Below, in pieces: positions 9,891-47,758 of a stretch of DNA of 64,000 bases (within the stretch, counting starts at the first letter, position 1; each line of letters begins with the position of its first letter). Under the pieces are notes generated by a model. It was not told the origin of the DNA, did not search any database, and saw only the letters and a program-made list of their open reading frames with translations. Where the stretch lies: the NCBI GenBank assembly GCA_002841335.1, contig PHEY01000004.1:124001-188000 (forward strand). The letters are read 5' to 3'. The DNA comes from Actinobacteria bacterium HGW-Actinobacteria-2 (GTDB lineage Bacteria; Actinomycetota; Actinomycetes; Propionibacteriales; Propionibacteriaceae). A program made the translations under genes and the position numbers.

Positions 9891-11137
9891 CAGTTGGCCC
9901 CTCCTGCGACACCGGCCGGTGCGTCGACGCCCTCATTGTCAGTCGACGTATCGGCGCCGTCGTTCCACTCATCGTTGACGTTGTCGTGGCTGACCGGATC
10001 CTGCTTGGAGTGCCACCACAAGTAGGCCGCGACCGCGCACATGATCGCGAAGATGGCAGCGCCGCCGCCTAAGCCGCCGATCAGGTGAGCGGTCCACCAC
10101 ATCGCGGCACCGACCAGGCCGGCTGCCGGAAGCGTCACGATCCAGGCCAGACCCATCCGGGCAGCCACCAGCCAGCGGACAGTGGCGCCCTTGCGTCCGA
10201 GCCCGGAGCCGATGATCGAGCCGGTGCACACGTGAGTGGTCGACAGGGCGAAGCCCAGCTGGCTGGACGTCAGAATCACTGCGGCCGAGGCGCTGTCGGC
10301 CGCCATGCCCTGGGGAGAGAAGACCTCCACCAGGCCGCGGCCCATCGTCCGGATGATTCGCCAGCCGCCGATGTAGGTGCCCGAGGCAATGGCCAGGGCG
10401 CAGGCGAACTTCACCCAGAGCGGGATCTCGGTGGTGGACGTCCAGTAGCCGCTGCCGATCAGCGCCAGGGTGACCACGCCCATGGTCTTCTGCGCGTCGT
10501 TGGTGCCGTGGGACAGCGAGAGCAGGGACGCGGTGGCCACCTGCCCCCAGCGGAAACCCGACTCCTGGTAGCGGCGGGAGAGTTTCGCGGTGATCCAGAA
10601 GACCAATCGGGTGCCGATCATGGCCACGACCATCGCCACCAACGGCGAGATCAAGGCCGGCAGCACCACCTTGCCGACCACGCCGTCCAGCTTGGTGCCT
10701 TCCCCGATCCACTTCACTCCGGCCCAGCCGAGGCTGGCCACGGTCGCGCCGACCAGGCCGCCGAACAGGGCATGAGATGAGCTGGACGGCAGCCCGAGCC
10801 GCCAGGTGAGCACGTTCCAGGTGATGGCACCGGCCAAGCCGGCCATCAGGATCAGCAGCAGGGCGTAGCCGCCGTCGGCGACCAGATCAGCGCGCGGTGT
10901 CCCGTCCGGGTTCTGAATGCGAATGACGGCGTTGGTGACCGTCAGGGCCACCTCCACCGAGAGGAAGGCACCGACCAAGTTGAGGATGGCCGACAGTGTG
11001 ACAGCGGCCTTCGGTGACAACGCCTTGGTTGCGATCGAAGTGGCCATCGCGTTCGCCGTGTCATGAAAGCCGTTCGTGAAATCGAAGGCCAACGCTGTGA
11101 CAACGACAAGCGACAGGAGTATGAACTCGGGGGTCAC
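9890..11137 (-). CDS. pit: Inorganic phosphate transporter, PiT family
   Basis: DFTNGFHDTANAMATSIATKAL; SHGTNDAQKTMGVV. Confidence 0.95.
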   Translation of the reverse strand: MTPEFILLSLVVVTALAFDFTNGFHDTANAMATSIATKALSPKAAVTLSAILNLVGAFLSVEVALTVTNAVIRIQNPDGTPRADLVADGGYALLLILMAGLAGAITWNVLTWRLGLPSSSSHALFGGLVGATVASLGWAGVKWIGEGTKLDGVVGKVVLPALISPLVAMVVAMIGTRLVFWITAKLSRRYQESGFRWGQVATASLLSLSHGTNDAQKTMGVVTLALIGSGYWTSTTEIPLWVKFACALAIASGTYIGGWRIIRTMGRGLVEVFSPQGMAADSASAAVILTSSQLGFALSTTHVCTGSIIGSGLGRKGATVRWLVAARMGLAWIVTLPAAGLVGAAMWWTAHLIGGLGGGAAIFAIMCAVAAYLWWHSKQDPVSHDNVNDEWNDGADTSTDNEGVDAPAGVAGGAN

Positions 11138-11170
11138 GATGACATGGTAGGGGTATCGGGGCCGCTTTAC

Positions 11171-11830
11171 CTACGCGGCCGAGTTGGTAGTCGTATTGGA
11201 CGTGCGACCCGGTGCTGGTGGGGTACTATCCGCCCTTCGTGTGGCGGCGATGGTCGCGACCCGGGCCAAAGCCGCCCGCATCCGCATCGGGGTGAAGCCG
11301 GCGGCCAGGGCACGTCGCCGCAGCCCGGCTTGCGCCTTGGCCAACGCCCAGCCGCGACGGATGGCGATGTGTGCCGGTTTGCGCTTGCCGGCCAGGTCGC
11401 GGCGCAGGCGCAGCAGATAGACCAGCGCCGCCGGACGGTCGAGATAGATCGCCTCGGTGGCCAGGCCGGCATCGCGGCACCGCTGCAAGAACTCGATCGC
11501 GAAGATGCCTTCCGCGCCCAGACAGGACGAGCCGTGCAGATCGACCGGATGGGTGCCCACCCGTCGGCTCAGCGAGATCGAGTAGTCGGGGGCATCGGTG
11601 TGGCCGGTGTGGATCAGTTCGGTCAGTCCGGCCATCGCGGCCTCGGCGTCCCAAGACAGCGGATCGTCCCAGTCGGTGATGCCCAACGAGGTCGTCGGCA
11701 TGCCGGGATGGTCCGCGTCGTAGTAGTAGTCGTCCAGGCGCAGGCAGGGCAGCCCGGAGGCGTGCATCAGGCGCGACTTGCCGCTGCCGGACGGGCCGGC
11801 GATCAGGAACAGGTGAGCCGGCGTGCTCAC
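11171..11830 (-). CDS. Uridine kinase-like P-loop protein
   Basis: VSTPAHLFLIAGPSGSGKSRL; LRLDDYYYD; GTG start overlapping the mutase stop. Confidence 0.75.
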   Translation of the reverse strand: MSTPAHLFLIAGPSGSGKSRLMHASGLPCLRLDDYYYDADHPGMPTTSLGITDWDDPLSWDAEAAMAGLTELIHTGHTDAPDYSISLSRRVGTHPVDLHGSSCLGAEGIFAIEFLQRCRDAGLATEAIYLDRPAALVYLLRLRRDLAGKRKPAHIAIRRGWALAKAQAGLRRRALAAGFTPMRMRAALARVATIAATRRADSTPPAPGRTSNTTTNSAA

Positions 11831-13464
11831 AGTCCCAGGACCGCCGTGACGTCGGAGCGCAGCTGGGCCAACTTGGCCGCGGCCGCCGCCCGCGCTGGGG
11901 CGAGCTCCCCGGGGGCGGTCACCTGCAGGTAGCACTTCAGCTTGGGCTCGGTACCCGACGGCCGCACCACCACCCGGACGCTCGCGCCGGTGAACGCCAT
12001 GCCGTCGGTGGGCGGCAGGTCAGCCGACCCCTCGGCCAGGTCGACCGCGGTGACCGGCTCGCCGGCCAAGGACGTCGGCGGATTGGTGCGCACCCGAGCC
12101 ATCGCCTCGCTGATCAGCCGCAGATCGGCCACTCGGAAGGACAGGCCCGAGTTGAGGTACACCCCGTAGGTGGCGGCGATCTCGTCCAGCCGGTCGGCGA
12201 CGGTGCGTCCCTCGGCCTTCAGAGAGGCGGCCAGGGCCAGGATCCGCACCAAGGTGGTGATCCCGTCCTTGTCGGGGACGGCGGACGGATCGCTGCAGTA
12301 GCCGATCGCCTCCTCGTAGCCGAAGGCCAGACCGGGGACGCGTCCGATCCACTTGAAGCCGGTCAAGGTCGTGGTGAAAGGCTGGCCGTGGGCGGCAGCC
12401 ATCGCCGACAGCATCGTGGAGGACACGATCGAGCAGGCGTAGGTGCCGGTGGTGCCGCGGCGCAGCGCGTCGTCGGCGAGCAGGATGCCCAACTCGTCAC
12501 CGGTGAGCATCCGCCAGCCGTCGGCGAACGGCGCGGCCAGGGCGCAGCGATCAGCGTCGGGGTCGTTGGCGATGGCGATGTCGGCATCCACCCGTGCGGC
12601 CAGCGCCAGCGCCAGATCGATCGCGCCCGGCTCCTCGGGATTGGGGAAGGCGACGGTGGGGAAGTCCGGATCGGGATCGATCTGCTCGGTGACCCGGTGC
12701 GGGTCGTCGAAGCCGGCGGCCTTCACCACGGCGTCGACCACCGAGGCGCCCACGCCGTGCATCGCGGTGTACACCCAGCGAACCGGACGCGGTGCGTCCG
12801 CGGCCACCAGTCCGGCTGCCCGGGCCACGTAGGCGTCGACCAGCTCGGCGTCGACGCGGCGGTAGTCGGTGCTGCGCGGAATCTGGTCGATCGGGGCGGC
12901 GGACACGATGGCGATCTGGGCGGCGATGTCGGCATCGGCCGGCGGCACGATCTGGGAGCCGTCGCCGAGGTAGACCTTGTAGCCGTTGTCCTGCGGCGGA
13001 TTGTGGGACGCGGTGACCACCACGCCCGCGGCGCAGCCGAAGTGCTTGATCCCGAAGGCGACCACCGGGGTGGGCAGCGGACGGGCGCACAGCAGCGGCA
13101 CCAGGCCGGCGCCGGCCAGGATCTCGGCGGTGTCGGCGGCGAACACGTCGGAGTTGTGGCGGGCGTCGTAGCCGACGATCACCGGTCGTCCCTGCTGGCC
13201 GGTGTTGACCAGATAGCGCGCCAGGCCGGCGGCGGCCTGGGCAACCACGACCCGGTTCATCCGGCCCGGGCCGGGACCGAGCTTGCCGCGCAGCCCCGCC
13301 GTGCCGAAGGTCAGCGGTCCGGCGAAGGCGTCGGCCAACTCGGCCTGGGCGTCGGCGTCCCCGGCGTCGGCACGGGCGATGAGCTGATCCAGCTCAGCCA
13401 CCGTGGCCGGGTCGGGATCTTGGGCTCGCCACGATCGCAGCTGATCCTCGGTGATCATCGGCAC
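11827..13464 (-). CDS. Phosphoglucomutase/phosphomannomutase (phospho-sugar mutase)
   Basis: FGTAGLRGKLGPGPGRMN, TASHNPPQDNGYKVY, NDPDADRCALA, PSGTEPKLKCY. Confidence 0.95.
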   Translation of the reverse strand: MPMITEDQLRSWRAQDPDPATVAELDQLIARADAGDADAQAELADAFAGPLTFGTAGLRGKLGPGPGRMNRVVVAQAAAGLARYLVNTGQQGRPVIVGYDARHNSDVFAADTAEILAGAGLVPLLCARPLPTPVVAFGIKHFGCAAGVVVTASHNPPQDNGYKVYLGDGSQIVPPADADIAAQIAIVSAAPIDQIPRSTDYRRVDAELVDAYVARAAGLVAADAPRPVRWVYTAMHGVGASVVDAVVKAAGFDDPHRVTEQIDPDPDFPTVAFPNPEEPGAIDLALALAARVDADIAIANDPDADRCALAAPFADGWRMLTGDELGILLADDALRRGTTGTYACSIVSSTMLSAMAAAHGQPFTTTLTGFKWIGRVPGLAFGYEEAIGYCSDPSAVPDKDGITTLVRILALAASLKAEGRTVADRLDEIAATYGVYLNSGLSFRVADLRLISEAMARVRTNPPTSLAGEPVTAVDLAEGSADLPPTDGMAFTGASVRVVVRPSGTEPKLKCYLQVTAPGELAPARAAAAAKLAQLRSDVTAVLGL

Positions 13465-22600: not shown

Positions 22601-23806
22601 ATGAGCCTTCTCGATCACGCCATCTGGTGGCAGGTCTACCCGCTGGGTGCCGTCGGCGCGCCCACGCACGCCGACGGCGCCGACCCGCAACCTCGACTGG
22701 CGCGCCTGGAAGCCTGGCTCGACTACGCCATCGAGCTGGGCTGTTCGGGTCTGCTGCTGGGGCCGATCTTCGCCTCGAGCAGCCACGGCTACGACACTCT
22801 CGACCACTTCCGCATCGACCCTCGTCTCGGTGATGACGCCACCTTCGACCACTTCGTCGACCAATGCCGCCGCCGGGGCCTGTCGGTGATGTTGGACGGC
22901 GTGTTCAATCACGTGGGCCAGGCCCACCCACTGGTGGCCGAAGCGCTCGCCGGCACTTCGTCCCTGGTCCGGATCGACGGCGACCGTCCGGCCGCCTGGG
23001 AGGGGCACGGCGACCTGGCCGAGCTCGACCACGCCAATCCGGCGGTGGCCGACCTGGTGGTCGACGTGATGCTGCATTGGCTGCGCCGCGGCATCGCCGG
23101 CTGGCGGTTGGACGTCGCCTATGCGGTGCCGACCGCCTTCTGGGCCGAGGTCACCGATCGGGTGCGCGCGGAGTTCAGTGACGCGGTCTTCCTCGGTGAG
23201 GTGATCCACGGCGACTACGTCGAGATCGTCCGCGACGGACACCTGGACACCGTCACCCAGTACGAGCTGTGGAAGGCGATCTGGAGCTCGATCAATGACC
23301 GGAACTTCTGGGAGCTGGCGTGGGCGCTGGAGCGCCACCAGGAGTTCACCGACGCCTTCCTGCCCCAGACCTTCGTCGGCAACCACGACGTGAACCGGAT
23401 CGCCGATCAGGTCGGTCCGGACGGTGCGGCGCTGGCAGCGGTCGTGCTGGCCACTCTGCCGGGAATGCCGAGCATCTACTACGGCGACGAGCAGGGCTTC
23501 ACCGGCCACAAGGGGGAGGGCTTCAGCGCCGATCTCCCGCTGCGTCCGCCGCTGCCGGACAGTCCCGCCCAACTGGCCGCTGAAGGCTGGTGGCTCTACC
23601 GGCTCCACCAGGACGTGATCGGCCTGCGTCGGCGCCACCCGTGGCTCACCCGCGGCCAGATCGAGGTGCTGGACAAGACCAACACCGAACTGACCTATCG
23701 GGTCAGCGGTGAGGGGCGCGCGGCGGTCGTCCGGCTGTGGCTGGACCCGCAGCCTCGTGCCCAGATCGAGGTGGACGGCCAGCCCATGTTCTCCTGGCCG
23801 GGCTGA
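22601..23806 (+). CDS. Alpha-amylase family (GH13) glycosidase
   Basis: SVMLDGVFNHVG, GWRLDVAYAVP, FVGNHDVNRI. Confidence 0.92.
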   Translation: MSLLDHAIWWQVYPLGAVGAPTHADGADPQPRLARLEAWLDYAIELGCSGLLLGPIFASSSHGYDTLDHFRIDPRLGDDATFDHFVDQCRRRGLSVMLDGVFNHVGQAHPLVAEALAGTSSLVRIDGDRPAAWEGHGDLAELDHANPAVADLVVDVMLHWLRRGIAGWRLDVAYAVPTAFWAEVTDRVRAEFSDAVFLGEVIHGDYVEIVRDGHLDTVTQYELWKAIWSSINDRNFWELAWALERHQEFTDAFLPQTFVGNHDVNRIADQVGPDGAALAAVVLATLPGMPSIYYGDEQGFTGHKGEGFSADLPLRPPLPDSPAQLAAEGWWLYRLHQDVIGLRRRHPWLTRGQIEVLDKTNTELTYRVSGEGRAAVVRLWLDPQPRAQIEVDGQPMFSWPG

Positions 23807-34633: not shown

Positions 34634-34950
34634 TCCTTCGTCCTCCCCAGGTGCCACGCTTTGGCCGCCATCATGCCAGCTTGCTCCCAAGGTGCTGCCG
34701 GACGCGCGTCAACGGGTCGGCGCACGTGCGTCACCCAGGTGATAGGTGGCGTCCATCCAGGTCCATCAATGGTGAGGTCTCCGCGATTACTGAAGATCCA
34801 GCTTTGTGTCATCTATGTGTCAGCTTTGCGGGAGTCATGGCGAGTCTATTGCGGCCAATTTGCGAGCTGTGCTTTGATATGCGCGACCCCCCAGGAGTCC
34901 GGCGTCATTCACTCGAGACGTCCGTCGCGTCAGTTATCGAGGATGGTTCT

Positions 34951-37371
34951 ATGTCTCGCCGGATGTGGGTTGTGCCTGCCCTAGCACTGATTTGGATGGG
35001 CGCAATTTGGAGCCCGCCAAGTGCGGTTGCGAGTCCGTCGGAGTTGCTTGATGAAGCGCAGGCAATGGATTTGGCGCGTGAGACAGGCGCTCCGGTGGTA
35101 GTCACGGCCAAGACCGACGAGACGACTCTCATTACCGCAGACCCAGTCACTGGCAACTTCACCGCCGAGTTGTCCGCACGGCCGGTGCGCGTCCGTGACG
35201 GCAACGGTGGTTGGCGGGCGGCGTCGGCGCGCCTGGTGAAAGCGCCGGACGGGTCCTGGCGGACCGAGGCCGGAGTTGCCGAGGTGACCGTTTCCAATGG
35301 CGGAGCGGCGGGCGTGGTGGCGTCTCTTCGTAGTGACTCGGTGTCGGCCTCCGTGTCGTGGCCCGATGCGTTGCCCGTGCCGGTGGTGGAGGACACCACC
35401 GCGACCTATCCGGAGGTTTACCCCGGTGTCGACTTGGTGGTTCGAGCAGACGTCGACGCAGTCGAGACCTTCTTGGTGGTGAAGACCCCATCTGCGGGCA
35501 GGAATCCCAAGGTGCGTGAATGGTCGATGCCGATCTCGACACCTGGCTTGACCACCAAGACGCTGGAGAACGGTGTGAGGTCGCTTGTCGATGGCAGTGG
35601 AACTGCGCGCATGGTGATCCCACCCGCGGTGATGTGGGACTCGGCGGGCAAGACGTCGAACCTGACTCACGCTGCTGACCGCTTGGAAGAGCTCGCCCAA
35701 ACAAAGTCGGCGCCGGTCGGGTTGAAGGTGGCATCCAATCGACTTACCGCCTCGCCCGAGGACTCATTCCTCGATGATCCGGCGACGGTCTACCCGGTGG
35801 TGATTGACCCGGTTCTGCAGTCCATCGACCAAACCCACGTGCTGCGGGTCACCGACGATTGGTCGAAGTGGGACAGTGCGGTGGGGTCTCAGGGAAAGAT
35901 CGGCTACAACGGCTGGACTTCGCCTTACTACCGCTCGCGGATGTTCTATCAGTTTGCCTGGCCGGCGAGCGGCCTGCTTCCTCAGCAGGTGATCCAGGGC
36001 CAGTTCCAGTACAAGCAGGTGCATTCCGTTCAACACTCGCCTTGCCTGTCGACGTCTTCGACCTATCCAACGGTCAAGGCGCGACTGGCGAACGCGATCT
36101 CCAGCACTGATACCTGGTCCGACCGTACTGGCACTAGTTGGCATGACCAGGCCAGCGTGGCGCCGAACACGACAATGGCGGTGGGGCACATCGACTATTG
36201 CGGCAAGACCTACACCGAAGTGTGGGATCTGACCAGCACGTTGAGAACGGAACGTCAGAACTACGCGAGCCGAACCACAGTGACCGTGGGGCTCTACTCC
36301 GCTGATGAGGGCAACAAGAACGGCTGGAAGTACTACTCCAACAGCGACGGAAACTCACCCAAGCTGCTTCTCACCTACCAGGTCGGGCTGCCAACGATTA
36401 GCGGTCTGGGGTTCTCACCCGCCTTGGATGTCAGTACGACCAACTCCACCGCACCAACGCTCTCTGCCACTGTGTCACTGTCAAGTGGGGGCATGTGCGT
36501 GACGACGGCGGCCTGTTTGAAAGCACGCTTCAGCGTTAGCGGACCCGGTGTGAGCGCGACCTACGAATCGGCGCCCGTAGGGAATGGTTCGCTCGCGTCG
36601 GTAACGCTTCCGAGCAACCTGTCCGACTTGTCGAACTACCAGATCAGCGTGAATGCTGTGTCGTTGGACACAGGCCTGGTGTCGCCAGTGAGTCAGCGTT
36701 CGATATATGTCCTCTTGCCCACGCCGCCAAGTGCGCCTTCGGGTGTGAAGTTGCTGGACGGCGCAGGTAACGATGTGGTGGGCACTGTCGCTTATGACAC
36801 GAACCTGGGCATCGGTGCAACCATGCCGAGCGGCGCGCTGTGTAGGGCCGAGGCCCCGAGTTGTCTTTCGGCGAAGCTCTGGTTCAAGGACGGCCAACAG
36901 GAGGTCGCCTCGTGCACTCTGAGCGGTCTACCCCCGGGGCAGTACGGGCAGTGCAGGCCCCCGGTGGCGCTGTCCGGAGGCCACAACTATGAGGTATGTG
37001 CCGCCACTCTCAAGGGCTCGAATGGAACTTGGTCTCCGGCTGTGTGTTCCACCTTCAATGTGTTCCGCACTCCTGAACCACCAACGCTAACGGGCTTGGA
37101 CCCCGAAGGGTTGGTGGCCAGATTCCAGGTCTCCGACCTCGATGCGGGAGTCACCACGGTCAGCTGGCTTGGAACCTGGAATCCGGCCAGCGGAGAGTCC
37201 GAGAGTGTGGTAGGAGAGGTGCCGATGGCCGAGGACGGTGTGCTGGAGATCCCTGTGAATGGGCCAGGCACGCTCGACATTAAGGTGATCGCCGGAAGGC
37301 CAGACAGCGGGGGTAAGATCGTCTATGGTGCCGAATCTGACGGGGCTGCTTGCTTGGTTGGGGAGCAGTGA
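34951..37371 (+). CDS. Exported DNRLRE-like domain protein coupled to RHS toxin
   Basis: Signal peptide MSRRMWVVPALALIWMGAIWSPPSAVAS; YPEVYPGVDLVVRADVDAVETFLVVK; YYRSRMFYQFAWP; GTGA overlap with next CDS. Confidence 0.8.
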   Translation: MSRRMWVVPALALIWMGAIWSPPSAVASPSELLDEAQAMDLARETGAPVVVTAKTDETTLITADPVTGNFTAELSARPVRVRDGNGGWRAASARLVKAPDGSWRTEAGVAEVTVSNGGAAGVVASLRSDSVSASVSWPDALPVPVVEDTTATYPEVYPGVDLVVRADVDAVETFLVVKTPSAGRNPKVREWSMPISTPGLTTKTLENGVRSLVDGSGTARMVIPPAVMWDSAGKTSNLTHAADRLEELAQTKSAPVGLKVASNRLTASPEDSFLDDPATVYPVVIDPVLQSIDQTHVLRVTDDWSKWDSAVGSQGKIGYNGWTSPYYRSRMFYQFAWPASGLLPQQVIQGQFQYKQVHSVQHSPCLSTSSTYPTVKARLANAISSTDTWSDRTGTSWHDQASVAPNTTMAVGHIDYCGKTYTEVWDLTSTLRTERQNYASRTTVTVGLYSADEGNKNGWKYYSNSDGNSPKLLLTYQVGLPTISGLGFSPALDVSTTNSTAPTLSATVSLSSGGMCVTTAACLKARFSVSGPGVSATYESAPVGNGSLASVTLPSNLSDLSNYQISVNAVSLDTGLVSPVSQRSIYVLLPTPPSAPSGVKLLDGAGNDVVGTVAYDTNLGIGATMPSGALCRAEAPSCLSAKLWFKDGQQEVASCTLSGLPPGQYGQCRPPVALSGGHNYEVCAATLKGSNGTWSPAVCSTFNVFRTPEPPTLTGLDPEGLVARFQVSDLDAGVTTVSWLGTWNPASGESESVVGEVPMAEDGVLEIPVNGPGTLDIKVIAGRPDSGGKIVYGAESDGAACLVGEQ

Positions 37372-40300
37372 TCGGGGTGAGGCACTCGAAGGCCGTACTA
37401 TCGACGCTAGTTGGGGTATCGCTAGCGTGGGGCGCGCTCGTCTCGGCTCCTCTCCCGGCCGCCGCAGATGACTGGAAGGATCCGGCAGCCCAGGAGTTCG
37501 CGTTCGTTGATACGCGCTCTCCAAAAGTCAGGAAGACGGCTGCCCCGGCCGTCCGGAGGGCGTCTTCGCCCGCGGCCGCTTGGCCGGAGGCGGGCTCCGG
37601 ATCGGTCAGTGGGCTCCGGGCGGGTGACCGTCCGGCCCAAGTGGGGGCGCTTCCGGTGAGTATCGGGGTGCCGTCGAAAGCGAAGAAGCCGGTGAGCGCC
37701 GCTGAGGTCCGAGTCATGGACCGAGTTCACAGCGAGAAGCTGGTGGGCCCCGGTGTGGTGTTTGCAGTCACTGGTGAGCAGGCCAGCGCAGCTCAGGTCT
37801 CGCTCGACTACAGCTCCTTTGCGAGTGCGGCCGGTGGTGGCTTCGGTGCGCGACTGCGGCTCGTTCAACTGCCCGAATGCGCCCTGAGTGATCCGGCGAA
37901 CCCTTCTTGCCAGGCGGCGACGCCGCTGAAGTCGACGCGCTCTGAGGAAGACTCGACTGTGAGCGCTTCGGTCGCCCTACCCGCTGTTACTACGGCGACC
38001 AGCACCATGGTGCTAGCGGCCGTGGCAGGCGCCTCCGGCGATCAGGGCAACTACGCGGCCTCACCGTTGAGTTCCGCTTCTTCCTGGCAGTCCGGTGGCT
38101 CAACGGGCTCCTTCAGCTGGTCTTACCCCATGCGTACGCCGCCCGTGGCGGGAAGCGTGGAGCCGGAGATCGAGCTGAGCTATGACTCCGGCAGCACCGA
38201 CGGCGAAGTGGCTGCATCGAACAACCAAGCATCGTGGGTGGGCGAAGGCTTCAATCTCCCGATCGGCTTCATTGAGCGCACCTACACCCCGTGTGCAGGC
38301 GACAAACCAGACAAGGGGTCGGCCCCGGCTGCCGCCACCGATGCTTGTTGGTACACCGACGGCCGCAAGTCCAACGACCGCAAGTGGGACAACGCCACTG
38401 TCAGCTTCAAGGGCCATTCAGGCACCCTCGTAAGGGTCGGGAACACCGACCAGTGGCGCTTGAAAGCAGACGATGGCACACGCTTTGAGCGTGTGGGCAG
38501 TGTCGGTTCAGCGGGGCAGGCCAGCACCGAGTACTGGAAGATGACCACCTCCGACGGGGTGCAGTACTTCTTCGGAAAGGGCAAGGCCGACGGTGCGTCG
38601 GCGACTGCAACTAACTCGCGTTGGATGCTCCCCGTCGCGGCAAATCAGGCTGGTGAGCCCGGGTACAACGCCGACTTCGCTCAGTCCTTCCAGAACCAGG
38701 CATGGCGCTGGAATCTCGACTACGTTGTCGACCCGAGCGGCGACACCATGACGGTGTACTACGACAAGGAAACCAACAAGTACAAGCAGAACGGTCAATC
38801 GCTGGTCAGCTACGACCGTGGCGGCATCATCAATCGGATCCAATATGGTGAGCGTCGAGGCGAAGAGTCGGTGACCCCTGCGGCCAAGGTCACCTTCGTT
38901 GCGAAGGAGCGTTGCGACACGACGGTGTCCGCAACTTGTGAGTCGACCCAACCGACCGCGGCAACGGTGACGGCGTGGCCCGATGTACCTACCGATGCGA
39001 TCTGTGACGACACGTACTGCCCCAGCCCCAAGAACTCGCCCACCTACTTCAGCCGCAAGCGCCTCGCCGAGGTGCACACCTGGACCAGGAACGCGTCCAA
39101 CAATGGCTACGACCCGGTGGACACCTGGAATCTTACGAGCACTTTTCCGGCAACGAACGATGGCACGTCGACCCCGACGCTATGGCTGTCCTCGATCACC
39201 CACGTGGGTGAGGGCGGCACTTCCGTCACGCTGCCCGCAGTAACGCTGGAGCCCGCGGTGATGCGCAACCGCATCTCGGGTCCGACCGGCACCTACGGCA
39301 TGAGCCGCCCGCGCCTGTGGCGAATCACGGACGAAGCGGGTGCTCGCACCACTGTGAGCTACAGCGGAGAGGACTGCACTCCCACGACGCTGCCGCAGAA
39401 CCCCGCCACCAACACCACCAGGTGCTTTCCGTCCTACTACAGCCCGGACGCGAACACCGCGCCGTCGGTGTATTGGTTCGCCAAGTACGTCGTGGAGAAG
39501 GTCGAGGTGTACGACCGGTCCACCGAGACCATTGGACTTCCAGCGGTGAGTGGAGTCGGGCTCGCGACGTCCGAGGTGACCACCTACGCCTACGGAGGCG
39601 GTGCGGCGTGGCATTGGGATGATTCGCCATTGCTGCCTGATGACTTCCGCACGTGGAGTGAGTGGCGGGGGTACGAGAAGGTCACGGCCATCGAAGGCAA
39701 CACCGACGCGCCCCGCTCAGTGACCGAGACGACCTGGTTCCGAGGCATGAATGGAGATCGCAGCGACGTCGGAGGTACCCAGACCAAGTCGGTAACCGTT
39801 TCCGACAGCGCCGGCGGCTCTGTGGCAGACGATGATGTGCTTGCGGGCCAACTGCGAGAAACCCGGGTATTGAAGAGCGTCGGTGGCGACCCCGTGGGCC
39901 GCTCGATTGAAGACCCATGGGTAAGCCCAACTGCGGCGGCGTCTGACGGCCGCGATCAGGCGATCATGGTCGATACCGCAAAGGTCACCAACACGCAGTT
40001 CCTGACGTCCGGTAGCCGTTCGCAAACCCAGACGATCAAGGAGCGCGACGCGTGGGGCCAGCCCACCGTTACCGAGGACACGGGCGACACGGGGCTGAGC
40101 GGCGACGAGAGTTGCACCCGCACGGCCTACGCCACCCCCACCGGGAACGCGCTCGCAACGGACCTCATCTCTGAGCAGTCGATCATGCCTGCGCTCTGCT
40201 CACAGAACCCCACAGAGGCGGCGGTGCTTGGTTGGGCACGCCACTACTACGACGGCTCCAACCAGCTCGGACAGGTCACCGGACCTGGGTTCGAGACACA

Positions 40301-43300
40301 AACGAAGGTGCTCTCCGGTTCCGCGAATCGGCAGTGGGTTACCAGTGCGACTTCGGCATACGACATTCATGGACGCAAGACCAGCGGCACTGATGCCCTC
40401 GGGCGCACCGGCACGATCGCCTACTCCCCAACGACAGTGGGAGCGGCCCGCCAGATTACGACCACTAGTCCAGACCCGGACGGTGCTGGTCCGGGGGCGC
40501 CCTTGGTGTCGCAGCTATACCTGGATCCGCGCTGGGGTGCGGTTACCAAGGCGGTCGCCGCTTCCGGAGTGACTGCGGAGTCCACTTTGGACGCGCTCGG
40601 TCGAGTCACGGCTACCTGGTTGCCCGGACGGGACAAGGCCACTCAGAGCGCATCGGTCAAGTACACCTATGTGGTCAACCAGGGCTCTGCCGGAATCAAC
40701 GCAACCAAGACCGAGTCCTTGCTGCCAAGTGGCAGCGGCTACGCCACGCAGTGGTCGATCTTGGATTCGCTGCTCCGCGTGCGGCAGGTCAAGACCCAAG
40801 CCTTGTCTGCGGGAACGCAGGTACAGGACACCCGATACGACTCTCGTGGCAACGCCGCGTTGGTTGATGAGTACATCGTGAGCGGAGACCCGACCTCGAC
40901 CCTCATTGCTCCCACCTATCGCGCCAACATCAAGCGCTCGGTTCGGACGACCTATGACTATGCGAGTCGCCCGTTGGTCAATGGACTGTACAAGGCTGAG
41001 ACGCTGCAATGGCAGACGACTAAGAGCTACGTCGGAGATCGGGTGTCCGTCGATCCTCCTCAGGGTGGAACTCCAACTACAACCGTCACCGATATCCATG
41101 GGCGCACGACTCAGCTGATTCAACACCTGGGTGAGGACAACTCGGGCACTGCAGTTACGACGAGCTACAACTACAACCCGGCGGGCTTGTTGGATTCGAT
41201 GACCGACGCCAAGGGCAACAAGTGGAGCTACACCTACGATCTCCAAGGGAATCGGCTCACGGTCTCTGACCCCGACGCTGGTGTGTCGACCAGTACCTAC
41301 GACGTGCTTGGCCGCTTGATCTCCTCGACTGACTCGCGGGGCAAGGGCACGCGGTTTGCCTACGATGACCTCGATCGGCTAACTGGAACCACCAGCCTGG
41401 ACGGTGCCACCCAGTTCACGTCAACGGTCTATGACACGGTGAAACCAGGTCTGGTTACGTCATCGTCGAGGTTCGTCGCCGGCTCCGAGTTCAAAAGCGT
41501 AGTAAACGCCTACGACTCGGCCGGCCGGTCCACGAGCAGCTCAATGGTGGTGCCCACGGTGGCAGGCCTCGTGCCGGCGGGTATCGCTGGCACCTACACA
41601 TCGACCCGCACGTTCAAGCCGGATGGCTCGATAGACACGGTTTCGCTGCCTGCCACCGGCCCGGTGGCCGCAGAGACATTGACGTATGGCTACACAAGCC
41701 GAGGAGCAACAACGAGCCTGACTGGCGCGGCGGCGATTGTGAAGACGACCGCGTACACCCAATGGGACACAATCTCGTCGTTGTCGATGGGGGCGGTGAC
41801 AGGGCAGTCGATCAGCGAGTCCTTCACCCGTGACGAAACGACGCTACGTCTCACTCAGCAGCGCACCTATCGGCAGGTGTCGGGGAGCAGCGCTGACGAA
41901 GACATGGTGTACACCTACGACCCGGCGGGCAACCTGACGCAGTTGAAGGCGAGCTTGAAATCCGGGCCGGTCGACAACCAGTGTTTCAAGTACGACTTCC
42001 AGGGGCAGTTGGTCGAGGCGTTCACCGCCGCTTCTTCGACAGTTTGCTCACCGACAACCACGCCGAGTCAGACGACTTTGGGTACGGGGCCGGCGCCGTA
42101 CTGGACGAGTTGGTCCATCGACACGATCGGTAAGACCACTCAGCGGGTCGATCGGACGGCTTCGACGAGTTCGACCACGGCGTTCACCTACGCAGCAGAT
42201 GGTGCCAGCTCGGTGCGCCCTCATGCCGTGGCCAGTGCGGTCACGACCGGTGCGGGTGCGGTGACTCGGTCGTATGTGTATGACGCCGCGGGTAACACCA
42301 CAGAGCGGCCGGGTCCGTCTGGCGTGACTCAGACCGTCGCTTATGACGATGAGGGCTTGCCCGTGTCGGTGTCGAGTGGCGGCAATGAGGTTGCCCGCAT
42401 GGTCTATGACGCTTTCGGTGAGCGGATCCTCAAGAAGGAAGGAACGCTCACGACGCTGAGCGTTGCCGGCACCGAGTTGAGCGTGGATGCCACCAGTGGT
42501 GTCGTGTCAGCGACCCGCTACTACGAGTACGGCGGTCAGACGGTGGCGACCCGGACAGGCAACACGAATGCCGACTTGTTCACCGTGATCACGGATCACC
42601 AAGGCAGTGCCCATCATCAGATTCGCAACAGTGACAGTCGGTTGGTGACGACGTGGCAGGGTCCGTTCGGGGTTCCGCGGGGTAGTGCTGCCAGCAGTTG
42701 GGTTGGGCAGCGCGGCTTCGTCGGTGGCACGAACGATGCGACTGGCCTGGTGCGGTTGGGTGCCCGGGATTACGACCCGTTGTTGGGCAAGTTCCTGACG
42801 GTTGATCCGTTGCAGAACTTGGGCGATCCGCTGCAGTGGAACGCCTACATCTATGCCAACAACTCGCCGGTAACGCACTCTGACCCGTCGGGGCTGATGT
42901 TGCCTTCCGACCCGGGGTCCGGTTGCATGGACTTGATGTCTGCGGGCTCCAGTTCGGGGTGCCCTGGCGATTCGCCATCGAAGCCGACAAAGCCGAAGAA
43001 GCCGAAGCCCCCTGTCAAGAAGAAGGTGAAGCCCGCCCCACGCCACGACGGGCCGACCCCGCACAAGCCCACGCCCACGAACCCGAAGCTGCCAGCGCCC
43101 AATCCGTTGCCATCGCCGATGCCGGACGTTGATCTGCCTCCGGGGTTCTGGGAAGCATTTGGCCACACAGTTTTGGATCTAGCGGGTCTGATACCCGTGG
43201 TGGGGATCGTGTTCGACGTCGCAAATGCCATCTGGTACGCCGCAGAGGGTGACTGGCTCGATGCTGGCATCTCACTTCTCGGAGTCGTGCCCGTGCTCGG

Positions 43301-43730
43301 TGAGCTAGGCGTGGCGGCCAAGATCGGCAGCAAGATCGCGAAGACGTTCAAGATTGGCGAGGAGGCGATCCCGGCCGCGAAGGCGCTGATTCCGGACGAG
43401 ACGGTCATCGCACGCGGAGGCGTGAACGACATTCCTGGGCCGGGCGAGGTGTTCTCTGGGGCGCAAGGAAAGTCCGTCGAGGAAGCTGCGGCCGGGCTCA
43501 AGCACGGCACCATGCGGACAACCACGGCAGGAGATATCCGAAGGAGCGGTGGAACGGTCGAGGCGGCGCCAGAGTTTGATCCGCGCGTTGGCGAGGTCAA
43601 CTACCAGCATGTGGATGTGTGCCTGGGGCCGGGGGTGTGCAAATGGAGTGACCTGACACCGAACCCTGTGCCGAAGGCTAACCGCTTTGGGGGGCTTGGA
43701 TACCCCTACTATGGAGGATTCCCGGGATAA
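37368..43730 (+). CDS. RHS/YD-repeat polymorphic toxin with pre-toxin helix and C-terminal toxin domain
   Basis: Signal peptide; many YD repeats; core end GARDYDPLLGKFLTVDPL...NSPVTHSDPSGL; PVVGIVFDVANAIWYAAEGDWLDAGISLLGVVPVLG; C-terminal module. Confidence 0.9.
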   Translation: MIGVRHSKAVLSTLVGVSLAWGALVSAPLPAAADDWKDPAAQEFAFVDTRSPKVRKTAAPAVRRASSPAAAWPEAGSGSVSGLRAGDRPAQVGALPVSIGVPSKAKKPVSAAEVRVMDRVHSEKLVGPGVVFAVTGEQASAAQVSLDYSSFASAAGGGFGARLRLVQLPECALSDPANPSCQAATPLKSTRSEEDSTVSASVALPAVTTATSTMVLAAVAGASGDQGNYAASPLSSASSWQSGGSTGSFSWSYPMRTPPVAGSVEPEIELSYDSGSTDGEVAASNNQASWVGEGFNLPIGFIERTYTPCAGDKPDKGSAPAAATDACWYTDGRKSNDRKWDNATVSFKGHSGTLVRVGNTDQWRLKADDGTRFERVGSVGSAGQASTEYWKMTTSDGVQYFFGKGKADGASATATNSRWMLPVAANQAGEPGYNADFAQSFQNQAWRWNLDYVVDPSGDTMTVYYDKETNKYKQNGQSLVSYDRGGIINRIQYGERRGEESVTPAAKVTFVAKERCDTTVSATCESTQPTAATVTAWPDVPTDAICDDTYCPSPKNSPTYFSRKRLAEVHTWTRNASNNGYDPVDTWNLTSTFPATNDGTSTPTLWLSSITHVGEGGTSVTLPAVTLEPAVMRNRISGPTGTYGMSRPRLWRITDEAGARTTVSYSGEDCTPTTLPQNPATNTTRCFPSYYSPDANTAPSVYWFAKYVVEKVEVYDRSTETIGLPAVSGVGLATSEVTTYAYGGGAAWHWDDSPLLPDDFRTWSEWRGYEKVTAIEGNTDAPRSVTETTWFRGMNGDRSDVGGTQTKSVTVSDSAGGSVADDDVLAGQLRETRVLKSVGGDPVGRSIEDPWVSPTAAASDGRDQAIMVDTAKVTNTQFLTSGSRSQTQTIKERDAWGQPTVTEDTGDTGLSGDESCTRTAYATPTGNALATDLISEQSIMPALCSQNPTEAAVLGWARHYYDGSNQLGQVTGPGFETQTKVLSGSANRQWVTSATSAYDIHGRKTSGTDALGRTGTIAYSPTTVGAARQITTTSPDPDGAGPGAPLVSQLYLDPRWGAVTKAVAASGVTAESTLDALGRVTATWLPGRDKATQSASVKYTYVVNQGSAGINATKTESLLPSGSGYATQWSILDSLLRVRQVKTQALSAGTQVQDTRYDSRGNAALVDEYIVSGDPTSTLIAPTYRANIKRSVRTTYDYASRPLVNGLYKAETLQWQTTKSYVGDRVSVDPPQGGTPTTTVTDIHGRTTQLIQHLGEDNSGTAVTTSYNYNPAGLLDSMTDAKGNKWSYTYDLQGNRLTVSDPDAGVSTSTYDVLGRLISSTDSRGKGTRFAYDDLDRLTGTTSLDGATQFTSTVYDTVKPGLVTSSSRFVAGSEFKSVVNAYDSAGRSTSSSMVVPTVAGLVPAGIAGTYTSTRTFKPDGSIDTVSLPATGPVAAETLTYGYTSRGATTSLTGAAAIVKTTAYTQWDTISSLSMGAVTGQSISESFTRDETTLRLTQQRTYRQVSGSSADEDMVYTYDPAGNLTQLKASLKSGPVDNQCFKYDFQGQLVEAFTAASSTVCSPTTTPSQTTLGTGPAPYWTSWSIDTIGKTTQRVDRTASTSSTTAFTYAADGASSVRPHAVASAVTTGAGAVTRSYVYDAAGNTTERPGPSGVTQTVAYDDEGLPVSVSSGGNEVARMVYDAFGERILKKEGTLTTLSVAGTELSVDATSGVVSATRYYEYGGQTVATRTGNTNADLFTVITDHQGSAHHQIRNSDSRLVTTWQGPFGVPRGSAASSWVGQRGFVGGTNDATGLVRLGARDYDPLLGKFLTVDPLQNLGDPLQWNAYIYANNSPVTHSDPSGLMLPSDPGSGCMDLMSAGSSSGCPGDSPSKPTKPKKPKPPVKKKVKPAPRHDGPTPHKPTPTNPKLPAPNPLPSPMPDVDLPPGFWEAFGHTVLDLAGLIPVVGIVFDVANAIWYAAEGDWLDAGISLLGVVPVLGELGVAAKIGSKIAKTFKIGEEAIPAAKALIPDETVIARGGVNDIPGPGEVFSGAQGKSVEEAAAGLKHGTMRTTTAGDIRRSGGTVEAAPEFDPRVGEVNYQHVDVCLGPGVCKWSDLTPNPVPKANRFGGLGYPYYGGFPG

Positions 43731-43735
43731 GGAGA

Positions 43736-44221
43736 TTGATGGACCTAGTCAGCTATCGTCAAGTGGTCGACCTACTTGCCGCGGTTGAGGACGTCGAATG
43801 GCATCTAGAGCGCGTGGCAGCAGGCGCGAGCCGACTTGTGGGCGTCCTCGGAGGTGCTGCTTTTGAACTTGAGGTCAGCCGAGATCGAGAGCCTGCGTCG
43901 GAGGGGGACCTCCAGTTTGTGGGTGCCTCGCTGGGTGACTTGAGGCGACTTGTAGCACTGCGCGAGACAGGGGCAAGGCTCGACCCAGAAGAGGCTTTGC
44001 TGATCCGCGAGCGATACGAGGCCGCAAGTCCGGGTCCGTGGGTCGCCTCTATCGAGGCCGATGGGGGTTTGGCGGGGTGCGATGTGATCCTCGTGAGCGA
44101 TCGCGACGATCAAGCCGACATGTACCTGTGGGTCGATGGCGAGCTTGCCCCTTCACGCCTGTTCAGGGTTGTTGCTTTTGCGCGGCAGGCTATTCCTGAT
44201 TTGCTTGAGCATGCCCGCTGA
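43736..44221 (+). CDS. Putative cognate immunity protein
   Basis: 161 aa ORF starting 5 nt after the RHS gene; AASPGPWVASIEADGG...FARQAIPDLLEHAR. Confidence 0.7.
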   Translation: MMDLVSYRQVVDLLAAVEDVEWHLERVAAGASRLVGVLGGAAFELEVSRDREPASEGDLQFVGASLGDLRRLVALRETGARLDPEEALLIRERYEAASPGPWVASIEADGGLAGCDVILVSDRDDQADMYLWVDGELAPSRLFRVVAFARQAIPDLLEHAR

Positions 44222-44455
44222 CGGGTTTCCGACTCCGCCTCTGCGTGGCCGTATCCGGAGCCGACCGACGGCGTGTCCGCAGTGCCGGGGCTGGGTCAGA
44301 CTCCGCCCGACGACGGCGAGTCGGGCCGCTGGGCTTCTTGGCATTCGCGTTTTGACCTTGCTGGCTCCGCCTTCTGAAGGACATGGGCCCACCCCATGGG
44401 GTCAGCCCAAAACGTCAAACTAACGGGATTCACGTGGCGGTGATTGGATAGCGCA

Positions 44456-44920
44456 GTGATTTACTACACCACGACGAGAACGGATGGATCGGAGTATGAC
44501 CGGATTCTTCGGATGTGTCGGAAGTTCGCGACGCTCGCTGGCTTGATGGTGGACTCTCCGGACCACTTCGCAAGTGGGTTCTTGGAGTCCATTGACAAGT
44601 TCGTGGTTCGAGAGGAGCCAGTCGGGGACTCTCCGGCTGGAAGATGCCCGACTCCGACGCGAAGGCTGATTTGCACGTACGACGATGAGTTCATTGAGGT
44701 GATTGAGGGGTTCAGCTCGGGACTTCTTTCTTGGCACGGGCCGCAGCTACCAGCCGACCTGCACCTTCTGCGGCCCGACGGATCCACCGTGCTCGGAACT
44801 GTGGTGGCGGAGTACCACGTCTATCTTGAGTTGACGGACCGCGAGGCCGCGGAATGGCTGCGTGAATGGCCACACAGCTTGATCGCGCAAGACGTCTGGG
44901 ACGCGGGCGCGCCCCTATGA
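44456..44920 (+). CDS. Putative immunity-family protein, copy 1 of tandem pair A
   Basis: GTG start inferred from paralogue alignment; LPADLHLLRPDGSTVLG...WLREWPHSLI. Confidence 0.7.
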   Translation: MIYYTTTRTDGSEYDRILRMCRKFATLAGLMVDSPDHFASGFLESIDKFVVREEPVGDSPAGRCPTPTRRLICTYDDEFIEVIEGFSSGLLSWHGPQLPADLHLLRPDGSTVLGTVVAEYHVYLELTDREAAEWLREWPHSLIAQDVWDAGAPL

Positions 44921-45050
44921 CTTCGCGAAGCGTGTTTGGAAGAGCCGTCGGTTCCTTGCTGGCCTTCGGGGTGCGTAACTCGCAGAGCCCCGTCCTAAGT
45001 CGCGCACCGGGGACCTCGGGTGGCACTCCGCGAGCGATTGGAGGGTTGAG

Positions 45051-45494
45051 GTGATTCACCATTTCGCGGTTGACGTTGATGGGCCGAACTATGGCCGCAT
45101 CCTAAGGCTGGGTGTGCGGTTTGCGTCGCTCGCGTGTGTCGTGCGCGAGCCGATCGGCCCGTGGGAAGGATCCTCCTTCATGGAGGAGGCTGAGGAGTTC
45201 TGGTTGTGGGATCGGGAGGTGTATGAAACCCCTGGGCGAACCTACGACCGATCGAGGTTGATGTGGGTGTATGAATACAACAACGAGTTCGTCGGTCTCC
45301 TCGAACGACATAGCCACGGCCTGCTGGATCGGCTCGGATCAAGGCTGCCGACAGACTTTTATCTGATGCGTGAAGATGGCTCGGCTGTGTTGGGGGCAAT
45401 AGCTGACGAGCGCTGTTGCTACGTTGACTTGAATGAAGTCGAAACCGCCGACTGGCTTCGGGAGTGGCCCGGAAGCTTGATCTCTGTGGAGTAG
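45051..45494 (+). CDS. Putative immunity-family protein, copy 2 of tandem pair A
   Basis: LPTDFYLMREDGSAVLG...WLREWPGSLI, paralogous to the preceding ORF. Confidence 0.7.
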   Translation: MIHHFAVDVDGPNYGRILRLGVRFASLACVVREPIGPWEGSSFMEEAEEFWLWDREVYETPGRTYDRSRLMWVYEYNNEFVGLLERHSHGLLDRLGSRLPTDFYLMREDGSAVLGAIADERCCYVDLNEVETADWLREWPGSLISVE

Positions 45495-45571
45495 GTGTCG
45501 GAACGGCTACGAGCGGCCAAAGCCTCCGGGCAATCGGCTACTGCTCGGCATGTGGGAAGGCGAGAGAGGCC

Positions 45572-46006
45572 ATGTTGCGCCAGGCGAGCGTGAGGATGCA
45601 GTCGCGCGTGCTGACCGCCGCGCAGATCACCGAGTTGGCGGGGGTCTCACCGACAAGGTATGTCAACGTCGGTGATCCCGTGAGTTCCCGCTTGTCGGAT
45701 GGGCCGAGACACAAGGTCACCACCTGGTCACGTTCGTCGATGGAGTCCAGCGACGTGCTCGCTGATCACGTTGTGGCGCTTCAGCCGATCCTCAACGTGG
45801 TCGGTCGGGTTCGCCAAGCCGACCCGGAGTTGTACGTGGACATTGTCATCATGCTGGAGGCGGCCTCGTTGGGGGCCATGATCGACGTGGAGGCCGCGCA
45901 CGTGGCGCTTCTTGCCCGCGCAGGCTGTGGGATCGTGATTGATGCCTATGAGGCAGACTCCCCGGAGCGGGTGCAGGCAGGAGAAGGACGAGTGGAGTTC
46001 CGATGA
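45572..46006 (+). CDS. DUF4279-like protein
   Basis: LTAAQITELAGVSPTRYVNVGDPVSSRLSDGPRHKVTTWSRSS...LADHVVALQPIL pattern. Confidence 0.6.
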   Translation: MLRQASVRMQSRVLTAAQITELAGVSPTRYVNVGDPVSSRLSDGPRHKVTTWSRSSMESSDVLADHVVALQPILNVVGRVRQADPELYVDIVIMLEAASLGAMIDVEAAHVALLARAGCGIVIDAYEADSPERVQAGEGRVEFR

Positions 46007-46539
46007 CCGACGTCCCACAAGAAGCGCTTCTCGCGTGGTGTCGTGGCCGCTTGAAGGAGGGCCTGTCCTTGGCGCAGTACCTCGCGGCGGCGGTTCTGGA
46101 TGACGCATGTGAAGCGCTGTTGGTTGTCGACAGTTCACCGGACCCCGAGTTGCGCTGGGGGCGAGGTGGTCGGGCTCAGTGGGCGCGACTGGCGGACCTC
46201 ATCATCGGCGACTTTCCGAATGCTGTGTTGGTCGTAGAGCTCCCGTTGGTGCGCCCCGGCGACCTGCCCGCTGGAGGCGTCGTCGTGCACTTCTGCGATG
46301 GCGAGGCATTTGCGGTCACACCGGTCGGCGACGGCAAGTCGGCGGTGGTCGAGGCACTGACCAGCGCTGATCCTTCCTCGCTCTATGTCGTGGCGATTGT
46401 GCAGCCTGACGACACGGTCGCCGACGCCGGTGGTCTTGTTCAGCGGGTGAAGGACGGGGCGGTGGAAGTCTTGGCCACGGTGGTCGGCGCTTACGATGGC
46501 GAAGGGTTCGTTTACTGCACGAGAACCGCTGCCCGATGA
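46003..46539 (+). CDS. Hypothetical protein in RHS-downstream array
   Basis: 178 aa, ATGA overlap with DUF4279-like ORF. Confidence 0.65.
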   Translation: MTDVPQEALLAWCRGRLKEGLSLAQYLAAAVLDDACEALLVVDSSPDPELRWGRGGRAQWARLADLIIGDFPNAVLVVELPLVRPGDLPAGGVVVHFCDGEAFAVTPVGDGKSAVVEALTSADPSSLYVVAIVQPDDTVADAGGLVQRVKDGAVEVLATVVGAYDGEGFVYCTRTAAR

Positions 46540-46745
46540 TGGGCCATCCGCGCACCACAAGAGTTGGGGATGTGATCCTTCTCTCCTCCTCAGGAGAACT
46601 GCCGCCGATTGCGACCAGCCTCTTCGGACGACTGCGCTGTCTGCGACGAGCGCTGCTCACCTTCCGCGCGCGGGGTGTGAGGTCGTGCCTAATGGCTGTC
46701 TGGCAGGCTCCACAGCAAGCGCGCGAGGGTGGCACTGACGGGTGA
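46536..46745 (+). CDS. Possible small ORF bridging two array genes
   Basis: Start overlaps upstream stop; its own stop overlaps downstream GTG; basic unrecognised 69 aa product. Confidence 0.3.
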   Translation: MMGHPRTTRVGDVILLSSSGELPPIATSLFGRLRCLRRALLTFRARGVRSCLMAVWQAPQQAREGGTDG

Positions 46746-47215
46746 GGGACATGACTGATTTGCTGAGCACCGCGCTGATGGCCGCTTCCGATGATCTTCG
46801 CGGTCAGCCAGTGTGGAGAGCGTGGGTTGGGGTCGGCAGCTTCATCGTGCTGGAGATGGGTGGGCGCCGGCGCAGCGGATCTGAGGACATCGGTGAGTAT
46901 CACCTGTGGGTCTGTGGAATGGATTGGGAGCTGTCGCTGAATGGGGTGGTGGTGGCGACCGACATCGACGACCGCGACACGATGGTGATGGCGGTGGAGG
47001 GGTTCACCGGACGGGTCGTGACTCGATTCGACTTCGACCCGAAGACCCTCGGATTCGTGCTGGAGGCCAACGGCGGGCTGCATCTTCGAGTGTTCCCGAG
47101 CATCTACGTCAGCATGAACGAGTGGATGCTGTTCATGCCGGATGGGATGGTCTGGAGTGTTGAGGATGGACGGCTGCTCCATGAGCATGAGTCGTCGGAC
47201 AAGGCGCCACTGTGA
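46742..47215 (+). CDS. Putative immunity-family protein, copy 1 of tandem pair B
   Basis: WELSLNGVVVATDIDDRDTMV...VTRFDFD...GFVLEANGGLHLRVFP...MNEWMLFMPDG. Confidence 0.7.
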   Translation: MRDMTDLLSTALMAASDDLRGQPVWRAWVGVGSFIVLEMGGRRRSGSEDIGEYHLWVCGMDWELSLNGVVVATDIDDRDTMVMAVEGFTGRVVTRFDFDPKTLGFVLEANGGLHLRVFPSIYVSMNEWMLFMPDGMVWSVEDGRLLHEHESSDKAPL

Positions 47216-47266
47216 GGGGCAGCGATCTGGCCTGTTCGCGCGCCTGTCTGGAGACCGGGGGTAGAC

Positions 47267-47719
47267 ATGGATGAGACGCTGCGCGCCGCGCTGGACGATG
47301 CCTGTGGCGAGCTGGTCGGCAAGGTGGTGTGGACGGCCAGGAACGGGGTGGGCTGCCGGGTGCAGTTGGGCCTGGGTGAGTCCCATTACGACGGAACCGA
47401 TGAGATCTCCCCGTACTTCTTGTGGCTCAGAGGGATCGGGTGGGAGCTGTCGAAGGATGGGGTCGTGCTGGCGACTGACGCCGATCGTCGAGACGTGATG
47501 GTTCGAGGAATCGAGCGACTCGTGGACGTTGCCATAACGCGCTTCGAGATGGACCTCCCCGGCGCCGGTTTCGTCCTCGGGGCCGAGAATGGCCTCAGGC
47601 TGGCCGTGCTCCCCGGCGATGACCCTGACCTCAATGAGTGGATCTGCTTCCTCCCCGGTGAACGGTACTTCGGGGCCGAGTGCGGTCAGCTTCGCCACCG
47701 CCTGGACAGCCCGGCGTGA
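47267..47719 (+). CDS. Putative immunity-family protein, copy 2 of tandem pair B
   Basis: WELSKDGVVLATDADRRDVMV...ITRFEMD...GFVLGAENGLRLAVLP...LNEWICFLPGE. Confidence 0.7.
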   Translation: MDETLRAALDDACGELVGKVVWTARNGVGCRVQLGLGESHYDGTDEISPYFLWLRGIGWELSKDGVVLATDADRRDVMVRGIERLVDVAITRFEMDLPGAGFVLGAENGLRLAVLPGDDPDLNEWICFLPGERYFGAECGQLRHRLDSPA

Positions 47720-47758
47720 AAGCGCCCTGCGCCTGAGCGATTGGAGGGCGCACGTTCG

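What the first reader, a model, noticed from the sequence alone, without database searches (positions are those of the whole stretch)
34951..47719. Two-gene exported RHS toxin locus with a long downstream immunity-like gene array
Seen: two large exported proteins coupled by GTGA (34951-37371, 37368-43730), the second an RHS/YD-repeat protein, then about eight small same-strand ORFs, several overlapping or closely spaced. Established: polymorphic toxin loci often carry cognate plus orphan immunity genes downstream. Inference: this is a polymorphic toxin locus with an immunity repertoire larger than one toxin tip needs. Nothing here resembles an IS or phage gene.
Basis: partly seen in the sequence, partly recalled or inferred. 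Interest (0 to 1): 0.8.

Follow-up and report, generated by a model that had tools for sequence, protein, structure and literature searches.

The report
RHS toxin with leftover immunity genes
An actinobacterium carries a 13 kb inserted block that encodes a large exported weapon protein, the gene that protects against that weapon's poisonous tip, and six further small genes, at least some of which look like protection genes kept after older tips were lost; this kind of locus is already known, but its tip and most of its protection genes belong to families not yet catalogued.

Summary
34951-37371 and 37368-43730 are two long ORFs coupled by GTGA, both with Sec-type N-termini; the second is an RHS protein. 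Seven (not eight) credible same-strand genes, a-g, follow to 47719.

Comparison with relatives supports the reading. In the genus, RHS homologues stay 45-56% identical up to the end of the core (about residue 1842) and then carry unrelated tips. The window tip recurs in an Intrasporangiaceae MAG at 66% identity on a core only 36% identical, followed by a gene-a homologue and none of b-g: tip + a is a mobile toxin-immunity cassette. Homologues of b/c sit behind RHS proteins with three other tips. The homologue of d (DUF4279) sits 4 bp behind a displaced HINT-toxin fragment at an RHS locus. So b, c and d are best read as immunity genes whose toxins are absent here. For e, f and g the only support is position.

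Eleven same-genus genomes have the empty site, so the whole block is an insertion.

This is a known kind: a polymorphic toxin locus with an orphan immunity array. The tip and families a, b/c, e and f/g match no Pfam or NCBIfam model. Toxicity and neutralisation are untested.

The parts
34700..47755 (.). Inserted RHS island (approximate limits), lower GC (about 0.61-0.65 against mostly 0.65-0.72 outside), between a beta-lactamase-like gene and a TIGR03089-like gene
   Evidence: Eleven same-genus genomes have bla near ManC, ten of them with the TIGR03089-like gene between, and no RHS or array; GC profile
34951..37371 (+). ORF1 (N): 806-aa exported partner protein upstream of RHS
   Evidence: ORF and start; similar two-gene layout in L076, L079 and L095; no Pfam or NCBIfam family
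37368..43730 (+). ORF2: 2120-aa exported RHS/YD-repeat polymorphic toxin; core ends with DPSG at residue 1842
   Evidence: TIGR01643, PF05593, TIGR03696; core conserved and tips variable among relatives
43374..43730 (+). C-terminal toxin tip, 118 aa, unclassified family
   Evidence: 66% identical tip on an otherwise 36% identical RHS in L093; 45% relative in an orphan module of L050/L094; no Pfam, NCBIfam or PDB match
43736..44221 (+). Gene a: cognate immunity gene of the present tip
   Evidence: Homologue directly follows the homologous tip in L093 (43%, 3e-31) and, as a shorter C-terminal relative, in L050; stand-alone homologue in G004, 56%
44444..44920 (+). Gene b: orphan immunity-type gene
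   Evidence: Family members behind RHS genes with three other tips in L047, L096 and L097; no such tip here
45051..45494 (+). Gene c: diverged sister of b
   Evidence: 38% identity to b; b and c are sisters at 100/100 support
45572..46006 (+). Gene d: DUF4279 (PF14106) orphan immunity gene
   Evidence: PF14106 7.6e-6; homologue in L095 lies 4 bp behind a displaced PT-HINT toxin fragment; a Rhs-Ntox33/DUF4279 pair is reported in Salmonella (PMC13304343); paralogue on own contig C8
46003..46539 (+). Gene e: 178 aa, coupled to d by ATGA; immunity role inferred from position only
   Evidence: Coding score; no convincing relative
46751..47215 (+). Gene f: immunity role inferred from position only
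   Evidence: Paralogue of g; only stand-alone relatives elsewhere: G007 L048 and a weak one in L106
47267..47719 (+). Gene g: paralogue of f
   Evidence: 41% identity to f, 1.5e-35

Best explanation
This is a polymorphic toxin locus of RHS type that arrived as an insertion, followed by an array of immunity genes of which only the first matches the present toxin. ORF1 and ORF2 are made together and exported by Sec (inferred from N-termini). The RHS core forms a shell around its C-terminal tip and cuts it free at the DPSG site (inferred from known Rhs proteins, PMC8636562). The freed 118-aa tip poisons neighbouring cells (inferred), and gene a neutralises it in kin (inferred from linkage in three loci). 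Genes b-d, and probably e-g, are immunity genes left behind as earlier tip-immunity cassettes were replaced at the 3' end of the RHS gene, plus local duplications (b/c, f/g). They would still protect against kin or rivals that carry the older tips.
For: RHS homologues in G008, G009, G026 and G007 are 45-56% identical up to the core end, then have tips unrelated to the window's. The window tip is 66% identical in L093 on a core only 36% identical, with gene a's homologue starting inside the RHS stop region and no b-g; a third tip/a-like pair lies in an orphan-module string in L050. b/c family members stand behind RHS genes with three unrelated tips, 3 of the 5 loci found outside the window. The d homologue lies 4 bp behind a PT-HINT (5.9e-11) toxin fragment downstream of a two-gene RHS locus in L095, which looks like a displaced module. 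Downstream genes differ in number and kind among relatives. The whole block is missing from the site in 11 relatives. Arrays made by sequential displacement are documented for Vibrio T6SS (PMC5361080).
Against: No toxicity or neutralisation data. For e, f and g no homologue lies beside a toxin; f/g relatives stand alone. No recognisable tip remnants remain in the gaps between array genes. Both predicted structures are of low confidence (pLDDT 41), so the toxin's chemistry is unknown. Some homologues of a (G004), b/c (G094, G087) and d (own contig C8) stand without RHS, which fits orphan immunity genes but also other roles.
Confidence: 0.82

Rival explanations
1. Only gene a (and perhaps b-d) are immunity genes; e, f and g are unrelated cargo or house-keeping genes that happen to lie in the same island.
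For: e has no convincing relative; f/g relatives in G007 and weakly in G198 stand alone. g ends close to the island's right edge.
Against: e overlaps d by ATGA, all genes share one strand and size class, and all seven are missing from the empty site in relatives, so they came with or after the RHS gene.
Confidence: 0.3
2. The whole array was acquired in one piece together with the RHS gene from another species rather than built up here by repeated tip replacement.
For: The entire 13 kb block fills a site that is empty in 11 relatives. Kirchberger et al. describe block transfer of ready-made arrays as well (PMC5361080).
Against: Does not explain how the array first formed; no donor with the same array was found in the genomes searched.
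Confidence: 0.4
3. The small genes serve expression, folding or export of the RHS protein (accessory factors) rather than immunity.
For: b/c-type genes follow RHS proteins with different tips, which would also fit a tip-independent helper.
Against: No b/c relative was found in the RHS loci L076, L077, L079, L080 or L093, so they are not needed; the d family goes with a toxin fragment that has no shell.
Confidence: 0.08
4. The RHS protein is a structural or adhesive surface protein, not a toxin.
For: No known toxin family in the tip; the tip's fold could not be predicted with confidence.
Against: The tip is swapped between homologues and moves with one small gene, and related tips occur as stand-alone orphan modules; this is the hallmark of polymorphic toxins.
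Confidence: 0.07

Closest known systems
Heterogeneous polyimmunity loci (Zhang et al. 2012, PMC3482391)
   Same: Tandem, same-strand, unrelated small genes with no toxin cassette between them; content differs between relatives; known also from actinobacteria
   Different: Attached directly behind a full toxin gene, whereas that paper sets polyimmunity loci apart from regular toxin loci; most families here are not in Pfam or NCBIfam
Orphan immunity gene arrays from effector displacement (Kirchberger et al. 2017, PMC5361080)
   Same: One current effector-immunity pair followed by immunity genes of other types; 3' replacement model
   Different: Described for T6SS in Vibrio; here a Sec-exported RHS protein of a Gram-positive, and no effector remnants seen between the genes
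Rhs/YD-repeat polymorphic toxins including WapA-type Gram-positive exporters
   Same: YD repeats, Rhs_assc_core, DPxG site, variable tip, Sec-type N-terminus (my reading)
   Different: Split over two genes (ORF1 + ORF2); no T6SS parts seen; relation of ORF1 to the WapA N-terminus was not tested
DUF4279 immunity proteins (Salmonella Rhs-Ntox33 pair, PMC13304343)
   Same: Gene d belongs to the family (7.6e-6) and its relative sits behind a toxin fragment
   Different: No Ntox33 match in the window; the L095 fragment matched PT-HINT but not Ntox33

Membership tests
RHS polymorphic toxin | YD/RHS repeats and Rhs_assc_core before the variable end | tested here: met
   TIGR01643 1.9e-17, PF05593 4.3e-13, TIGR03696 3e-15
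RHS polymorphic toxin | Conserved core, unrelated tips in close relatives | tested here: met
   Core 45-56% identical in four same-genus loci; similarity ends at residues 1842-1948; no tip match except L093
RHS polymorphic toxin | Tip moves with a cognate immunity gene | tested here: met
   L093: tip 66% and a 43%, core 36%; third pair in L050
RHS polymorphic toxin | DPxG autocleavage site at the core end | tested here: met
   SDPSG at residue 1842, also in relatives; cleavage itself not testable
RHS polymorphic toxin | Tip is toxic and the immunity protein neutralises it | not testable with these tools
   Needs expression experiments
Heterogeneous polyimmunity locus | Four or more tandem same-strand immunity genes of unrelated families | tested here: inconclusive
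   Seven same-strand genes in five sequence families; immunity linkage shown for a, b/c and d only
Heterogeneous polyimmunity locus | No toxin cassette between the immunity genes | tested here: met
   Gaps of 51-222 bp; the longer ones without coding signal, none with convincing tip similarity
Heterogeneous polyimmunity locus | Content differs between related genomes | tested here: met
   Downstream genes of G007, G008, G009 and G026 loci differ from the window and mostly from each other
Heterogeneous polyimmunity locus | Separate from regular toxin loci | tested here: not met
   The array begins 5 bp behind the RHS gene; hence better called an orphan immunity array of a toxin locus
Effector-displacement immunity array | Downstream genes are cognate to effectors carried by other strains | tested here: inconclusive
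   By gene order, b/c lie behind three other RHS tips and d behind a toxin fragment in L095; not shown for e, f, g, and cognate action is untested
DUF4279 (PF14106) | Profile score above the curated cut-off | tested here: met
   26.6 bits, cut-off 25

The most novel reading that the evidence does not exclude
The tip and gene a are a previously uncatalogued toxin-immunity family pair, and b/c, e and f/g are further uncatalogued immunity families, so the array is a record of successive tips that this Propionibacteriaceae lineage, or the donor of the island, has carried or met.
Probability: 0.45. Interest if true: 0.5.

Novelty: new member of a known kind. Interest (0 to 1): 0.38.

Why it matters
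It gives a clean, testable case of tip swapping and immunity retention in a Gram-positive, Sec-exported RHS system, where such arrays are less studied than in T6SS. It offers one toxin-immunity pair with support from another bacterial family, and candidate immunity families with named partner tips in other genomes. It does not change the general picture.

Tried and rejected
Family searches (Pfam and NCBIfam for all; PADLOC for ORF1 and a-g; PDB sequences for the tip only) gave no family for the tip, ORF1, a, b, c, e, f or g. AlphaFold models of the tip (3 sequences) and of f (2 sequences) had mean pLDDT 41, so no fold search was made. Tip searches in plasmids, phages and viral contigs found nothing. 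The single genome-contig scan used narrow peptide patterns and found only two relatives, so the tip's true spread is probably underestimated. Remnants of old tips in the gaps: none convincing; a 24-aa match in gap b-c (E 0.001) fell in an ORF that does not look coding. e relatives: one hit is antisense to a pyruvate-oxidase-like gene (L063), another did not hold up in L109, and a weak one in L110 is to part of a 287-aa hydrolase-like ORF. Site repeats at the island edges: only a 9-base match. Promoter and terminator scan: nothing above chance. Whole-RHS search of the genus failed once and was repeated with a fragment.

Full report
Observation. ORF1 (34951-37371, 806 aa) and ORF2 (37368-43730, 2120 aa) overlap as GTGA and both begin with Sec-like signal sequences by eye. 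ORF2 matches the YD-repeat, RHS-repeat and Rhs_assc_core models, and no other RHS gene was found in the genome. Behind it lie seven credible same-strand genes, a-g. In every one the annotated frame gives the best codon score of six (narrowly for a), whereas the larger gaps do not look coding. b/c and f/g are paralogous pairs.

The block is an insertion. In eleven same-genus genomes the beta-lactamase-like gene and the ManC gene lie close together, in ten of them with the TIGR03089-like gene between, and no ORF1 or RHS match is found there. In the window the beta-lactamase-like gene and the TIGR03089-like gene are 13 kb apart, and the whole block of ORF1, RHS and a-g fills the gap. (The TIGR03089 name is my own recollection; the Pfam scan gave no family for that ORF.) The GC of the block is about 0.61-0.65 against mostly 0.65-0.72 around it. 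No clear site repeats were found. The array genes are thus not ancestral neighbours; they came with, or were added behind, the RHS gene.

The tip is swapped. RHS homologues in G008, G009, G026 and G007 are 45-56% identical to ORF2, but similarity ends between residues 1842 and 1948, at or soon after the DPSG that closes the core; their tips are unrelated to the window's, and their downstream genes differ. In L093, from an Intrasporangiaceae MAG, the reverse is seen: the core is only 36% identical while the last 118 residues are 66% identical. A recombining tip is the defining mark of polymorphic toxins.

Gene a goes with the tip. In L093 the tip is followed, with overlapping ends, by a 43% identical homologue of a and by none of b-g. 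In L050/L094 a 45% related tip sits in a string of orphan modules, two of which share the same leader sequence, and is followed by a shorter protein related to the C-terminal half of a. In G004, a sister species with no RHS match in the genus search (assembly 89% complete), a 56% homologue of a stands alone, as expected of an orphan immunity gene. That a neutralises the tip is inferred, not shown.

The other array genes. Members of the b/c family lie behind RHS genes with three further, unrelated tips: G008 (L047), G210 (L096, after about 400 bp) and G150 (L097, after one 73-aa gene). Two more members, in G094 and G087, have no RHS neighbour. In a survey of 295 other class genomes the family was found in only two, both behind RHS. 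b and c are sisters (100/100), so one probably arose from the other by duplication. Gene d is a DUF4279 protein. Its relative in L095 lies in the region behind a two-gene RHS locus, 4 bp after a fragment that carries a pretoxin HINT domain (PF07591, 5.9e-11) and a toxin-like end: it looks like a displaced tip with its immunity gene. DUF4279 has been reported beside a Rhs-Ntox33 toxin in Salmonella (PMC13304343). For e no reliable relative was found, and for f/g only stand-alone relatives; their immunity role rests on position alone.

Mechanism. The best reading is that ORF1 and ORF2 are exported, the RHS shell encloses the tip and releases it by aspartyl autocleavage (established for other Rhs proteins, PMC8636562; only the motif is shown here), the tip acts inside a neighbouring cell, and a protects kin. 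Replacement of the 3' end of the RHS gene by incoming tip-immunity cassettes leaves old immunity genes downstream, the process argued for Vibrio T6SS arrays (PMC5361080). Whether the array was built in this lineage or arrived ready-made cannot be told; no donor with the same array was found.

Known or new. Tandem immunity arrays were defined as polyimmunity loci in 2012, also for actinobacteria (PMC3482391); there they are set apart from toxin loci, so the present case is closer to an orphan immunity array of a toxin locus. The kind is known. What is not catalogued is the tip, its immunity gene a, and families b/c, e and f/g, none of which matches Pfam or NCBIfam. The chemistry of the tip remains open because the structure models were poor.

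Noticed in passing
L050 (G019:C16) / L094 (DLGC01000006.1): A string of orphan modules at a contig end: the same leader (MLGSSVLGAVSGLFGG...) stands before two different toxin tips, each with its own small downstream gene; one further ORF in the string looks, from memory only, like a TNT-type toxin.
   Followed up: partly
L095:9136-10327 (G163): A displaced HINT-toxin fragment and a DUF4279 gene lie between a two-gene RHS locus and a set of transposition-like genes; the first 27 residues of the fragment are repeated (89%) behind the DUF4279 gene.
   Followed up: partly
L093 (JAJPIW010000006.1), 7687-12022: The RHS gene with the window's tip is followed by conjugation-like (TraD/VirD4-type) and primase-like genes, so that copy may sit on an integrative element.
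   Followed up: no
L076 reverse 10927-11235 and 11468-11764; L079 reverse 10209-10454: Small membrane proteins of one family recur behind RHS loci of G008 (two tandem copies) and G026; candidate immunity proteins against membrane-acting tips.
   Followed up: no
L077 reverse 9093-9752 and L050:6711-7331: A 47% identical small gene is shared by the G009 RHS array and the G019 orphan-module array: another travelling array gene.
   Followed up: no
L046:5185-6461 (own genome, contig C8): A second DUF4279 gene (45% to d) with a 215-aa neighbour overlapping it by a few bases, no RHS gene near: a stand-alone candidate orphan immunity gene in the same genome.
   Followed up: partly
window 46003-46539 and L110:1504-1740: The C-terminal half of e is 41% similar over 87 residues to the N-terminal part of a 287-aa hydrolase-like ORF in G344; weak, origin of e unclear.
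   Followed up: partly
window 22691-22764: ARAGORN reports a tRNA with an undetermined four-base anticodon (acgc) inside a region of long ORFs; probably spurious.
   Followed up: no
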